Position numbers and translations under genes: made by a program. Positions 3,950 through 11,377 of a DNA stretch of 56,501 nucleotides are shown piece after piece (position 1 is the first letter of the stretch; the number at the start of each line of letters is the position of its first letter). The notes under the pieces were generated by a model. That model worked only from the letters and a program-made list of their open reading frames with translations, made no database searches and was not told where the DNA came from. Source of the stretch: Alistipes sp. (lineage in GTDB: Bacteria; Bacteroidota; Bacteroidia; Bacteroidales; Rikenellaceae); assembly GCA_017531305.1 (NCBI GenBank), contig JAFXLG010000071.1, positions 1 through 56,501 on the forward strand, given 5' to 3'.

Positions 3950-5248
3950 TTATTCTACGATAATCAGGTAATAATTTTTCTTACCACGCTGTGCGATCAT
4001 ATACTTACCAGCGATAAGGTCCTCCTCGGTAACCTGACGCATGGCATCGGCAACCTTCTCCTTATTCAACGATACGCCACCGCCCTGCACCATCTTGCGG
4101 CACTCGCCCTTCGATGGGAATACCTTGGTAAGATCTGCTGCCATATCGACAAACGAGCAGCCCAACTGCTCACGCTTGATGGTGAACTGAGGTACGCCCT
4201 CGAATACCTGCAACAAGGTCTGCTCATCCAACTTATGCAAAGCCTCCGATGTAGTACCACCGAAGAGTATCTGCGAAGCCTCAACAGCCTTCTCATACTC
4301 CTCAGCCGAGTGAATCATGATGGTGATCTCCTTAGCCAAAGTCTTCTGCAACTCACGCATATGAGGAGCCTCCTCGTGACGAGCGATCAACGACTCGATA
4401 GTCTCACGGTCGAGGAGTGTAAAGATCTTGATATAACGCTTAGCATCCTCATCGCTCACGTTGAGCCAGAACTGATAGAACTTATATGGCGATGTGTAGC
4501 GCGGGTCGAGCCATACGTTACCACTCTCGGTCTTACCAAACTTAGTACCATCTGCCTTGGTGATCAGAGGGCAAGTGATGGCAAAAGCCTCAGCCTCAGA
4601 GCCCAACTTACGGCGGATAAGCTCAGTACCTGTAGTGATGTTACCCCACTGATCGGCACCACCCAACTGAACCTTGCAACCCAAAGTCTGGTAGAGGTGC
4701 AAGAAGTCATAACCCTGCAAAAGCTGGTATGTAAACTCCGTAAACGACATACCCTCGCCCTCGCCGCTGAAACGCTTCTTGACAGAATCCTTAGCCATCA
4801 TGTAATTAACGGTGATGCACTTACCGATATCGCGAGCAAAATCGAGGAACGAGAACTCCTTCATCCAATCGTAGTTATTTACCAAGAGAGCCTTATTATC
4901 AGCCTCCGACTCAAAGTCGATAAGCTTCGACAGCTGACGCTTGATAGCCTCCTGATTGTGACGCAAGGTCTGCTCATCCAACAGGTTACGTTCCTGAGAC
5001 TTACCACTTGGATCACCGATCATACCTGTCGCACCACCAATCAGGGCGATAGGACGATGCCCACACATCTGAAAATGCTTCAAAATCATCACACCGACCA
5101 AGTGACCGATATGCAATGAATCAGCCGTAGGGTCAATACCCAAGTAGGCTGTTGTCATCTCCTTCTCGAGCTGCTCCTTGGCACCAGGCATGATCGTGTG
5201 GATCATACCGCGCCACTCCAACTCCTCAACAAAATTCTTTGTAGCCAT
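3950..5248 (-). CDS. tyrS: Tyrosine--tRNA ligase
   Basis: A 432-residue class I aminoacyl-tRNA synthetase that charges tRNA-Tyr. The HIGH signature is HIGHL at residues 46-50; the KMSKS-equivalent loop reads KFGKT near residue 235, as in bacterial Tyr[11 protein letters not shown] and the tyrosine-binding YQLLQGYDF segment are present. A C-terminal S4-like RNA-binding domain covers about residues 360-425 ([13 protein letters not shown]). It lies 23 bp after dnaX and 19 bp before folB on the minus strand, so probably one transcript. Confidence 0.97.
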
Positions 5249-5271
5249 ATTAATTTTAGTTTTTGTATATT

Positions 5272-7092
5272 CTATTCATACTCCATGTCGAGCTCCTTCT
5301 TGAGTTTTAGGATCAATGGGCTCTTCTGTGTCATGTATTGTATTCTATCCTCCAACTTTATTGGGCGAGACGTTTTGACCTGCTCGTTAACCACAACCTT
5401 CAGATCAATCATACCCTTGATCCCTGCCGAGCGTACTATCATCAGCAGAATCTCGGTCTTAGATCGCATAATCTCTTCGTAGAGTGCTTTGGTAGGCACC
5501 TCCACGCTAATGGTATGACCGTTGAATGTCATCGCCTCAAACGCCGTTACGAAACGTGGTCGCTCGCGCAAGATAGATTTCAGCACCTGCTCTCTATTAG
5601 CAGCTATTTTCTCAGCGCACTGCTCATCATACTCAGACTCCTTGACATCCTCCTTCTTTGTCTGAGATTCCACAACCTGTGGCACATCGTCCCTCATCAA
5701 AGAGAGTATGGATAAACCCGCAAGCGAAGAGTGATGCACCGTCTGCTGCTCTTTGGGTTGACTCTCCACCGTAGGCTTCTCAGTAACGACTGTCTCCTGC
5801 GCAACATTATTAGGCGCAGCCATAGACGACATCTGCGGCTGAACCACGGCAGATGATGCTACCACCGAAGAGGCTACACTCTTTTCTATAGGATTGCTCT
5901 TAGGAGATGGATTAACTACTGCGACACCTACAGGCGTGATTTGAGATGGCAATTCTGGAAGCAGATACTCCTCCAGAAACTCTATTACGGAGTCATTATT
6001 TTTTTTTTTGCCGAGACCTGCTATCTTCATCAGTCCCAGTTCCACGAGCAATCTCTGATTAGATGATTGTTTGATCTTACCATCTGCCTCCATTAGAATA
6101 GATATCGCACCGAAGAGGAAGTTGGTTTCACACCTTTGAGCTTGTTGCTTGTAACGCTCCATCAATCCACCCGTAAGTTCAATGAGAGATATAGCTGGAC
6201 CCTGAGCCAGCAACAAGTCTCGCATATGTTGATTCAGACCACTCATAAAAGTCTGAGCCGAGAATCCTTTGGCAAGTACCTGATCGAATTGGAGCAATGC
6301 CTCGACATAATCGCCTCCAAGCAAGAGATCAGTCATTCTAAAGAAGGTATCGTAATCAAGCACATTGAGTGTCTGCGCCACCTGCTTGTATTGCAATTCC
6401 GAGTTACAGAATGACACAGCCTTATCAAACATCGACAAGGCATCACGCATACCACCATCTGCCTTCTGGGCAATCAAGTTCAACGACTCCTCATCATACT
6501 TTACGCCTTCTGCCTGAGCAATCTGCTTGAGATATCCTACCGAATCCTCGACACGGATACGATTGAAGTCATATACCTGACAACGCGACAGAATGGTAGG
6601 GATGATCTTATGTTTCTCGGTAGTTGCCAATATAAAAATCGCGTGCTTGGGTGGCTCTTCCAAAGTCTTTAGAAAAGCATTGAACGCCTGCTGCGAAAGC
6701 ATATGCACCTCATCGATGATAAAGAGCGAGTATTTACCGATCTGAGGCATGATACGCACCTGCTCGATCAAGGCTCTGATATCATCCACCGAGTTATTCG
6801 ATGCAGCATCCAACTCGTGTATATTAAGCGAACGTCCCTCATTGAAGGCGCGGCACGACTCACACTCATTGCAAGCCTCTGCACCATTGGGGTTCATACA
6901 ATTTATAGCCTTAGCAAATATGCGGGCACATGTGGTCTTACCCACTCCGCGAGGACCGCAGAACAGATATGCGTGCGCCAACTGACCACGCTCGATAGCA
7001 TTCTTGAGCGTAGAGGTTATACTCTGCTGACCCACTACCGTAGAGAATGTGGCAGGGCGATATTTACGTGCCGATACTATAAATTCACTCAT
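5272..7092 (-). CDS. dnaX: DNA polymerase III subunit gamma/tau
   Basis: A 606-residue clamp-loader ATPase and replisome organiser. Domain I has Walker A GPRGVGKT (46-53), the four zinc cysteines C65, C74, C77 and C80, Walker B IIDEVH near 125-130, and the SRC finger near 169-171. The collar (domain III) ends near residue 358 (LVELGLMKI). A linker rich in Pro/Ser/Val/Gln (about 375-480) and a C-terminal tau-type domain follow. The codons for residues 362-365 lie in a run of eleven A (5999-6009), just after the collar; loss or gain of one A stops translation at once, which would leave a 365- to 368-residue gamma-like form (see findings). Full length is only read with exactly eleven A (or a change of three). 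First gene of the dnaX-tyrS-folB run. Confidence 0.96.
5999..6009 (-). other. A11 slippery run in dnaX (candidate transcriptional slippage site)
   Basis: On the coding strand the run is GGC, eleven A, then TAATGACTCC. In the main frame it reads Lys-Lys-Lys-Asn-Asn. With twelve A the next codon is TAA after four Lys; with ten A the frame reads Lys3-Ile-Met-Thr-Pro-TAA. Both alternatives end at the border between the clamp-loader core and the tau tail. Confidence 0.6.
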
Positions 7093-7100
7093 AACTTCCG

Positions 7101-7108
7101 CAAAGATA
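7101..7108 (-). promoter_or_regulatory. -7 box of dnaX, very close to the start codon
   Basis: Minus-strand TATCTTTG lies 8 bp before the dnaX ATG (7092-7090). If used, the transcript would start within a few bases of the ATG, giving an almost leaderless mRNA. No clear -33 element is seen. Confidence 0.45.
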
Positions 7109-7163
7109 TAAAAAAGTCCGAAATGGGAGGTAATTTTTATAGATATTTACCAAATAAAAGTTT

Positions 7164-9955: not shown

Positions 9956-11377
9956 ATGTTTAACTTCTTTGCTCCCCCTGCGGCTAAGCCACTCATTGCT
10001 GCCGATAAAATAGATGCAGAATACCGCCGTATGCGTATCAAGGTATTTGCTGGAGCATATCTCGGATATGCAGGCTACTACTTGGTTCGTAAAAACCTTT
10101 CGTTGGCTGCACCCGGGATGATCGCCGAAGGTCTTTTGGATAAGGAGACCGCGGGTTTCGCCATGGCAGGTATTCCAATCGCCTACGCATTCAGTAAATT
10201 CCTGATGGGTAGCCTTTCGGATCGCTCCGATGCACGCAAATTCTTGGTCATTGGTCTTATCATCGCCTCGCTGGTGATGATAAGCGTAGGATTGGTACCC
10301 TACTCGGCTTCGATAGCAGTAAATGGCGCAATGTTGTTTTCGTTCATGCTGGCGGTAGGTTGGCTTTCGGGTATGGGATGGCCTCCTTGCGGACGTATCA
10401 TGGCACATTGGTTCTCGCAGAACGAGCGCAGCTTCAAGATGTCGGTCTGGAATACCTCACATAATATTGGAGGTGGATCGCTGGCTCTGCTCGTAACCAT
10501 GGGTATCACTATTTTTGCCTCGCTGGGTATCGCCGAGAGTTGGCGAGCAGCATTCATCGCCCCCTCTATTGTGGCAATATGCTTGGCTCTGTTCTGCTGG
10601 TGGGCACTCCGAGACACCCCCGAATCGTGCGGTCTGCCCTCTATCGAGGAGCATCGTCAGGATTTCACCGCCCGCAAAGCTGCCAAAGGCGAGGAGATAA
10701 AAATCCCATTCAGACGTCTGTTTGTCGATTATATCTTCCGCAACAAGCTACTCTGGATGGTAGCCATCGCCAACGTATTTATCTACTTCATCCGCTACGG
10801 CGTGAGCGACTGGTCGCCCACATACCTTCAGGAGATGAATGTAATGAACGCCGATGAGAGCCACTTGGCATTTTCACTGTTTGAGTACGCTGGTATCCCT
10901 GGCACTATAATCTGCGGATGGATGGCATCGAGATTCTTCGCTGGTCGTTGCGCACCTGTCAACGTTATCGCCATGGTCATGGTGCTGCTCGGCATATTGT
11001 GCTATTGGTAAGCCGATACCTTGGGCATGATGCTTGGCTCGGAGAACGTGGTGAAATGGATTGTCTATATCTCGCTCTCTATTACAGGCTTCGCTCTTTA
11101 TGGTCCTATTGCTCTGATCGGCATACAGACCCTCAGCTTCGTTCCGAAAAATGCGGCTGGCACAGCGGCTGGATTCGTTGCCTTGTTCGGCTATCTGTTT
11201 GGTGATGCTGTACTTTCGAAGATCGTCATCGGTCAGGTTGCAGGCAACGCTTCATTGGGTTGGGGTGTTACATTCTGGATGTTTATCGTGGCTGCCGTTT
11301 TGTCGATCCTTATCTGCGCCATTACATGGAGAAGGGAGTACGACATGATGCAGGAACGTATGGCACAAGGCAGATAA
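9956..11377 (+). pseudogene. glpT: GlpT-like glycerol-3-phosphate/phosphate antiporter, interrupted by one TAA
   Basis: A major facilitator of the organophosphate:phosphate antiporter family. The N-terminal motif GAYLGYAGYYLVRKNLSLAAP, the loop KFLMGSLSDRSDARKFL and the C-terminal PKNAAGTAAGFVALFGY are GlpT-like. The frame is open from 9956 to 11008 (351 codons, through about helix 9), meets TAA at 11009-11011, and then stays open in the same frame to 11377, encoding the missing last helices. Together they make 473 codons, close to the 452 residues of E. coli GlpT. Only the stop separates the halves; there is no frameshift. The downstream part begins GCC GAT ACC TTG GGC ATG and has no good start of its own. 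A change from CAA or AAA to TAA would explain it. Readthrough or a sequence error are alternatives. Likely to have been expressed with glpD. Confidence 0.85.

What the first reader, a model, noticed from the sequence alone, without database searches (positions are those of the whole stretch)
5999..6009. Eleven-A slippery run in dnaX exactly at the gamma/tau boundary
The dnaX coding strand carries GGC-A11-TAATGACTCCG at codons 362-365, directly after the clamp-loader collar domain and before the linker of tau. Adding one A gives Lys4 then TAA; removing one A gives Lys3-Ile-Met-Thr-Pro then TAA. So slippage by one base in either direction makes a gamma-like protein of 365-368 residues holding domains I-III. 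E. coli makes gamma by programmed -1 frameshifting, and Thermus thermophilus by RNA polymerase slippage on an A9 run. The A11 run is kept although AAG codons would avoid it, which suggests selection. I do not know of a report for Bacteroidota.
Basis: partly seen in the sequence, partly recalled or inferred. Interest (0 to 1): 0.75.

Follow-up and report, generated by a model that had tools for sequence, protein, structure and literature searches.

The report
Hairpin and A-run slippage switch, dnaX
A gut bacterium's clamp-loader gene carries a run of eleven A's behind a conserved RNA hairpin exactly where the protein must end early or run on, and the way relatives keep the run while shifting reading frame suggests that RNA polymerase slips there on purpose to make two proteins from one gene.

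Summary
Observation confirmed: A11 (window 5999-6009, minus strand) at dnaX codons 362-365, right after collar domain III. Adding one A stops after KKKK; removing one stops after KKKIMTP.

It is conserved. All 51 distinct Alistipes-group genes keep A10-A12 there; all 153 third positions of the run codons are A (41.9 expected); both non-tau frames stop within 11 codons in 51 of 51. In other orders of the class 46 of 48 sampled genomes have the run, plus 54 of 55 more of one family; within the order it is missing from 55 Prevotellaceae/Bacteroidaceae-type loci and 14 of 27 others. The tau frame is not fixed: in 54 of 191 run-bearing genes gamma is the plain product and tau needs a slip, of either sign, with at least 29 switches on the tree.

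New here: a hairpin abuts the run. In Alistipes it ranks first of 38,816 possible helices of the gamma region for pairing, covariation and double changes; an unlike hairpin ranks jointly first in a second family. This favours polymerase slippage over ribosomal frameshifting.

Two-ORF dnaX with A10 was reported before (Antonov 2013), and Thermus slips on A9. No RNA or protein data could be checked.

The parts
5272..7092 (-). dnaX, tau as encoded in the zero frame (606 aa)
   Evidence: ORF, Pfam, PDB sequence matches to DNA polymerase III gamma/tau
5999..6009 (-). A11 slippery run, codons 362-365
   Evidence: sequence; A10-A12 in 51 of 51 distinct Alistipes-group genes
6011..6039 (-). RNA hairpin abutting the run: stem 6032-6039 with 6011-6018 (8 bp in this genome, 10 bp in the genus consensus), 13-nt loop, one C before the run
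   Evidence: folds at -9.0 kcal/mol; covariation in 51 sequences
5996..5998 (-). TAA stop reached if one A is added (or the ribosome shifts -1): gamma of 365 aa
   Evidence: reading of the sequence
5985..5987 (-). TAA stop reached if one A is lost (or two added): gamma of 368 aa
   Evidence: reading of the sequence
6016..6390 (-). collar domain III (residues 235-359), last domain of the predicted gamma
   Evidence: Pfam PF12169
5275..5998 (-). tau-only tail: variable linker, then a conserved C-terminal domain (about 5275-5649)
   Evidence: tail intact to the C terminus in the 6 Alistipes-group genes where it lies in another frame; alignment A2 of 34 sequences; no PDB sequence match

Best explanation
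The cassette is a programmed transcriptional-slippage site that makes two clamp-loader proteins from one dnaX gene. RNA polymerase copies the T-run, a nascent RNA hairpin forms directly behind the RNA:DNA hybrid, and the A-run RNA realigns on the template, so the mRNAs carry A-runs of mixed length. Messages with the encoded number (or plus or minus multiples of three) give tau (606 aa); the others meet a stop within a few codons and give gamma (365-368 aa, domains I-III). Because all three frame classes are produced, it hardly matters which frame the tail has in the DNA, so the tail frame drifts in evolution. Shown by sequence: conserved run, closed alternative frames, frame reversals, covarying hairpin, no shared 3' structure. 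Inferred: that slippage happens, that polymerase rather than ribosome does it, that the hairpin stimulates it, the product ratio, and that gamma is used.
For: Run kept in 51/51 Alistipes-group genes; third-position A 153/153 vs 41.9 expected, the only 3 of 35 K/Q/E columns that are 100% A-ending. Both non-tau frames stop within 11 codons in 51/51; tail-wide control medians 32 and 19 codons. Tail frame: 45 in frame (one, L026, cut by its contig end), 3 need -1 A, 3 need +1 A, tails intact in these six; over 191 run-bearing genes 137/46/8 with at least 30 state changes on the tree. By a published criterion (PMC3711429, section 10) mixed direction among orthologues points to transcription. Run in 46/48 same-class genomes of other orders and 72/73 of family f29, and in none of the other 50-codon windows tested in those genes. 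Hairpin abutting the run: rank 1 of 38,816 helices on three measures; its best pair has the highest mutual information of 36,046 pairs of variable third positions, and GC3-stratified shuffles reach the observed pairing 0/2000 times; a second, unlike hairpin in f29 is jointly rank 1 of 36,740. No shared 3' structure.
Against: No RNA-seq or protein data. An A-run is slippery for ribosomes too; the commoner out-of-frame class (tau at +1 A, 46 vs 8) is the one a -1 ribosomal shift would serve; and in 8 of 51 Alistipes-group genes the run ends in G in the reading frame, which makes the E. coli heptamer A_AAA_AAG. Hairpin: against codon-preserving recoding the energy gain is modest (mean z -0.89; 25 of 51 below -1) because the peptide favours the stem; RNAalifold on the same alignment predicts only the outer 5 pairs at -0.74 kcal/mol; two of five shuffle measures show no excess (275/500 and 116/500); pair 12/42 ranks only 11,939th by mutual information and pair 21/33 is unpaired in 24 of 50. 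Several genes lack a clear hairpin (e.g. L015, L036, L067), L036 having a shifted tail. In f29 the helix is rank 44 for pairing alone and 41 of 72 have all 8 pairs; more distant phylum members show no signal (mean z +0.6). For this genome alone, one of three folded pieces (run plus 3' side) was unusually stable (z -2.63). The run is missing from 55 of 55 Prevotellaceae/Bacteroidaceae-type loci.
Confidence: 0.75

Rival explanations
1. Ribosomal -1 frameshifting on the A-run (E. coli-like): ribosomes slide back one base on the A-run and stop at once, giving gamma.
For: The -1 ribosomal frame stops within 6 codons in 41 of 45 tau-in-frame Alistipes-group genes. In 46 of 54 out-of-frame genes tau would be reached by a -1 shift. 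Eight of 51 genes hold A_AAA_AAG in frame. Ribosomes slide on homopolymeric A (title of PMC4363877 in the listing).
Against: 8 genes need the opposite shift; the frame that a +1 ribosomal shift would reach is also closed within 9 codons in 45/45 tau-in-frame Alistipes-group genes; no shared 3' structure over 50 genes; the conserved structure abuts the run on the 5' side, where it would lie inside the ribosome (inference).
Confidence: 0.17
2. Phase variation: the run changes length by replication slippage and switches tau on and off in a population.
For: A10-A12 tracts are mutable (general knowledge), and run length differs by one between close relatives (L025 A12 among A11 genomes).
Against: 137 of 191 genes are in frame rather than a third, f29 keeps exactly A10 in 59 of 72, a shifted frame is shared by two related species (L037, L038), tails stay intact in the six shifted Alistipes-group genes, and the hairpin has no role in this reading.
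Confidence: 0.05
3. No recoding: a Lys-rich peptide at the domain border happens to be written with A, and split genes are assembly errors.
For: A Q/K/E-K-K peptide is conserved at the site; many genomes here are metagenome-assembled with unverified homopolymers.
Against: Synonymous bias 153/153; closure of both frames in 51/51; covariation at third codon positions; split genes also in single-contig genomes (G117, G230).
Confidence: 0.03

Closest known systems
Thermus thermophilus dnaX transcriptional slippage (A9)
   Same: A-run in dnaX, tau in one ORF, nearby stops in both other frames, gamma from slipped mRNAs (as told in PMC5009743 and PMC1088944, passages read)
   Different: Here A10-A12, a covarying hairpin abuts the run (whether Thermus has one was not checked), and relatives reverse which product is in frame
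Two-ORF dnaX genes of Antonov et al. 2013 (PMC3711429)
   Same: A-run (nine of 17 with A10), gamma in the zero frame and tau by realignment, as in 54 of 191 run-bearing genes here
   Different: This window has tau in frame; they report 17 genes from 12 genera in one direction (-1 at DNA level); both directions, the many switches and the hairpin are added here
E. coli dnaX programmed -1 ribosomal frameshift
   Same: Same kind of product pair from dnaX; 8 of 51 relatives also hold A_AAA_AAG
   Different: No such heptamer in the window and no shared 3' stem-loop; the conserved structure is 5' of the run
Roseiflexus IS630 stem-loop-mediated transcriptional slippage (Penno 2015, seen only through passages of PMC5009743)
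   Same: Nascent RNA stem-loop directly 5' of the slippery motif
   Different: Slippery motif there is T5C5 with loss of one base; here a homopolymeric A-run whose relatives need slips of either sign

Membership tests
dnaX transcriptional slippage (Thermus type) | A-run of 9 or more at the gamma/tau border | tested here: met
   A11; A10-A12 in 51/51 of the group
dnaX transcriptional slippage (Thermus type) | both non-tau frames closed near the run | tested here: met
   4 and 7 codons here; at most 11 in 51/51
dnaX transcriptional slippage (Thermus type) | mRNAs with heterogeneous A-run length | not testable with these tools
   no RNA reads available
dnaX transcriptional slippage (Thermus type) | two DnaX proteins in similar amounts | not testable with these tools
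   no protein data
Two-ORF dnaX (Antonov 2013) | gamma ends in the zero frame, tau tail in another frame | tested here: not met
   tau is in frame in this window; the feature is present in 6 of 51 Alistipes-group genes and 54 of 191 run-bearing genes
E. coli-type -1 ribosomal frameshift | A_AAA_AAG slippery heptamer | tested here: not met
   the window reads AAA AAA AAA AAT; 8 of 51 relatives do hold it
E. coli-type -1 ribosomal frameshift | conserved 3' stem-loop | tested here: not met
   mean z -0.52 and -0.55 just 3' of the run against -0.17 to -0.50 farther on, 50 genes; one favourable fold in this genome alone
E. coli-type -1 ribosomal frameshift | upstream Shine-Dalgarno-like element | not tested
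   not tested
Stem-loop-mediated transcriptional slippage (Roseiflexus IS630 type) | RNA stem-loop 5' adjacent to the slippery motif | tested here: met
   predicted and covarying; its formation in RNA not tested
Stem-loop-mediated transcriptional slippage (Roseiflexus IS630 type) | T5C5 slippery motif with loss of one base | tested here: not met
   A-run instead; direction of slippage not testable

The most novel reading that the evidence does not exclude
Alistipes, a second (probably flavobacterial) family and much of class Bacteroidia, though not the Prevotellaceae/Bacteroidaceae type, run their replicase on a polymerase slippage site, in at least two clades a hairpin-plus-A10 cassette, so efficient and so indifferent to direction that the reading frame of the tau tail has become nearly neutral: the gene makes both proteins whichever frame the DNA encodes, and the frame has switched at least 29 times in the sampled tree.
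Probability: 0.62. Interest if true: 0.78.

Novelty: new variant of a known kind. Interest (0 to 1): 0.66.

Why it matters
It would make programmed RNA-polymerase slippage part of the normal decoding of a replication gene over much of a major bacterial class, with a defined hairpin-plus-run element in place of the ribosomal signal of E. coli. It bears on whether gamma matters outside E. coli, shows a gene whose reading frame is close to neutral, and warns that automatic annotation may call such dnaX genes truncated. Existing RNA-seq could test it at once.

Tried and rejected
3' stimulatory structure: 50-nt windows along 51 genes gave no clear signal 3' of the run. The single-genome fold with z -2.63 is told but not taken as evidence. 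Rfam: no match over window 5200-7150 up to E 1. The promoter/terminator scan gave nothing used here. Structure prediction of the tau tail was not available; the PDB profile search found nothing; Pfam gave only PF11490 at E 0.09, below cut-off. The first f29 helix test looked at the wrong register because of end gaps and was redone anchored on the run; one search's target ranks are not used. Phase variation, coding accident and assembly error were considered and set aside (rivals). The Prevotellaceae/Bacteroidaceae GGGC-loop-GCCC element was considered as another recoding site: I saw no homopolymer after it and the alternative frames are not closed soon in all, so it is left unexplained; that group was picked by a pattern holding GGGC and GCCC, so its 55/55 GGG count is not independent evidence. 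My notebook gives 27 A>=9 runs in the genome; a recount gives 26.

Dropped rows: L002 (no hit to the dnaX query); six duplicate loci; three same-order genomes with only weak matches (G042, G047, G053) were not fetched (21 of 24 were); two of 198 genomes had no match and 86 of the 147 matching 'same phylum' genomes were not fetched; two of 60 genomes had no match; three genes of undetermined frame (L026, L290, L295) were left out of the frame counts. L230 has A10 at codon 398 but is counted as without a run because the window was cut at codon 400.

Full report
What is there. The + strand of the window has T11 at 5999-6009, which is A11 on the coding strand of a 606-codon ORF at 7092..5272. The ORF is dnaX: AAA+ and lid domains, then collar domain III ending at residue 359, with DNA polymerase III gamma/tau chains as best PDB matches. 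The run spans K362, K363, K364 and two bases of N365. One extra A gives KKKK-TAA (365 aa), one A fewer gives KKKIMTP-TAA (368 aa).

Is it chance? In the 2.05-Mb genome A>=9 runs occur at 26 places and this is the only A11. I extracted the site from 139 of the first 140 loci; after removal of six duplicates 51 sequences form the Alistipes group (37 of the genus group including the window, and 14 named records, two of them titled only Rikenellaceae bacterium). All 51 have A10, A11 or A12 beginning at the same codon. Codon usage in the gamma region of the same genes is 28% AAA for Lys and 20% CAA for Gln, and GC3 runs from 0.47 to 0.91, yet all 153 third positions of the three run codons are A where 41.9 were expected; of 35 columns with K/Q/E in 90% of genes only these three are fully A-ending, the next best 71%. 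A>=9 runs were found in 50 of 50 testable genes at codons 351-400 and in none of the other nine 50-codon windows.

Both other frames are closed. In all 51 genes the two frames that do not lead to tau stop within 11 codons of the run; from places in the tau tail the control medians are 32 and 19 codons. Outside the group both are closed within 15 codons in 12 of 13 (further loci of the order), 43 of 46 (class), 28 of 30 (phylum) and 71 of 72 (family f29, overlapping the class set); one class gene (L178) leaves one non-tau frame open for 89 codons. Closing both frames is useful only if slips of both kinds occur (inference).

Which product is in frame changes. In 45 of 51 genes the tau tail is in the DNA frame (one, L026, is cut by its contig end); in three (L025 A12, L035 A11, L039 A11) it needs one A fewer (or two more), in three (L036-L038, A10) one A more, and in these six the tail is intact to its conserved C terminus. 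Sampling the phylum (198 genomes, 196 with dnaX; no genome of the window's own order besides itself was among them) I fetched all 48 same-class genomes and 61 of 147 matching more distant ones: the run lies at codons 350-400 in 46 of 48 and 30 of 61, one more (L230) having A10 at codon 398. In one family (f29; all 18 of that sample plus 55 new) 72 of 73 have it. Inside the order the picture is mixed: 13 of 27 further loci (21 genomes, six records) have it, and 0 of 55 Prevotellaceae/Bacteroidaceae-type loci. Over 297 genes the states are tau in frame 137, tau at +1 A 46, tau at -1 A 8, no run 103, undetermined 3; among the 191 run-bearing genes at least 30 changes of state (29 for in-frame versus shifted) are needed on a FastTree tree of the gamma region. 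Shifted genes also occur in single-contig genomes (G117, G230), so assembly error is not a general answer. Antonov et al. take mixed direction among orthologues as the mark of transcriptional realignment (PMC3711429, section 10).

A hairpin abuts the run. In most of the 51 genes the 42 nt before the run fold into a stem whose base touches the run or is a base or so away; a few (e.g. L015, L036, L067) fold weakly. On the ungapped alignment a 10-bp helix has 85.4% of cells paired and a covariation score of 0.294; sliding the partner gives 0.04-0.10 and shuffling 0.171 +/- 0.013 (0 of 500), while two further measures, pairs with a double change (4 against 3.6) and further pair types (20 against 18.6), show no excess. 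RNAalifold on the same alignment keeps only the five outer pairs at -0.74 kcal/mol. Relatedness is controlled by comparing every possible 10-bp helix (loop 3-40) in the aligned gamma region: of 38,816 this one ranks first for pairing, covariation and double changes. The pairs with many double changes lie at third codon positions. One (columns 18/36: A-U 18, C-G 8, U-A 8, G-U 3, G-C 2, other 11 of 50) has the highest mutual information of 36,046 pairs of variable third positions; another (12/42) is first for pairing and double changes jointly but only 11,939th by mutual information, so part of its covariation may be base composition; 21/33 is poor. Shuffling the 3' side within GC3 strata never reaches the observed pairing (0 of 2000). 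In f29 the hairpin is unlike in sequence and size (8 bp, 4-nt loop, CUCUAUCA...UGAUGGAG) but sits in the same place; 41 of 72 have all eight pairs and no other helix of 36,740 is both as paired and as covarying, though it ranks 44th for pairing, 9th for covariation and 2nd for double changes taken singly. In the other run-bearing loci mean z against synonymous recoding is -0.83 (order, 13), -0.84 (class, 46, of which 18 are f29) and +0.6 (more distant phylum members, 30). The same null in the Alistipes group gives -0.89 against -0.44 to +1.13 for ten other windows, a modest effect because the peptide itself favours the stem. So the hairpin is well supported in two clades, suggestive in others, and not general in the phylum.

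How it probably works. From the hairpin base to the end of the run is 10-12 nt in this window, its tau-in-frame relatives and f29, close to the 9-10-bp RNA:DNA hybrid quoted in PMC5009743 (passage). A polymerase that has just copied the run therefore holds an all-A hybrid with a hairpin at its back, the layout of stem-loop-mediated slippage described there for Roseiflexus IS630. A shared 3' stem-loop of the E. coli kind is not seen, and a hairpin touching the run on its 5' side would lie inside a slipping ribosome (inference). I therefore prefer polymerase slippage, with the ribosome as a possible helper: the excess of +1 A over -1 A genes (46 to 8) fits either insertion-prone slippage or a share of -1 ribosomal shifts, and 8 of 51 Alistipes-group genes (not the window's) have A_AAA_AAG in frame.

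What is known. Thermus dnaX slips on A9 with stops in both other frames (PMC5009743 and PMC1088944, passages). Antonov et al. 2013 found 17 two-ORF dnaX genes in 12 genera, nine with A10, and proposed transcriptional realignment (PMC3711429, abstract, passages and section 10); the passages name only Chloroherpeton and Chlorobium, the supplementary list could not be opened, and it may include Bacteroidetes. Literature searches (for some only 15 of 36 and 20 of 175 papers were listed) showed me no held paper on a hairpin at this site, reversals in both directions, or class-wide conservation; I judged by listings and did not open most of those papers. Larsen 2000 and Penno 2015 are not held and are known here only through the review. 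I file the finding as a new variant of a known kind.

Limits. There are no RNA or protein data; many of the genomes are metagenome-assembled; the tau tail's C-terminal domain could not be modelled, and that it corresponds to domain V of E. coli tau is only a guess from position.

Noticed in passing
dnaX at about codon 370 in L080-L099, L101-L104, L106-L127, L129-L131, L133, L134, L136-L138, L140: 55 of the 60 loci outside the Alistipes group and Tidjanibacter (mostly titled Prevotellaceae/Bacteroidaceae) have no A-run at the border but GGGC-(3-4 nt)-GCCC with an in-frame GGG codon, mostly followed a few codons on by a Leu-Lys pair; GGG is about 11% of Gly codons there. It recalls the Roseiflexus slippage hairpin GCGGGCgcaaGCCCGC quoted, but I saw no homopolymer after it. 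Unexplained.
   Followed up: partly
window 9956-11377 (+): A glycerol-3-phosphate-transporter-like gene (name recalled, not tested) after a glpD-like gene is interrupted by an in-frame TAA at 11009-11011; the rest follows in the same frame. Nonsense mutation or assembly error.
   Followed up: no
L200:2651-2728 (+): A Flavo-1 RNA (Rfam RF01705) lies near dnaX in one family f29 genome, which suggests that f29 is a flavobacterial family.
   Followed up: no
L187, L191 (family f30), L328 (family f29), 14 of 27 further loci of the order: Lineages without the A-run at codons 350-400; run presence/absence needs at least 22 changes on the tree. How these make gamma, if they do, is open.
   Followed up: no
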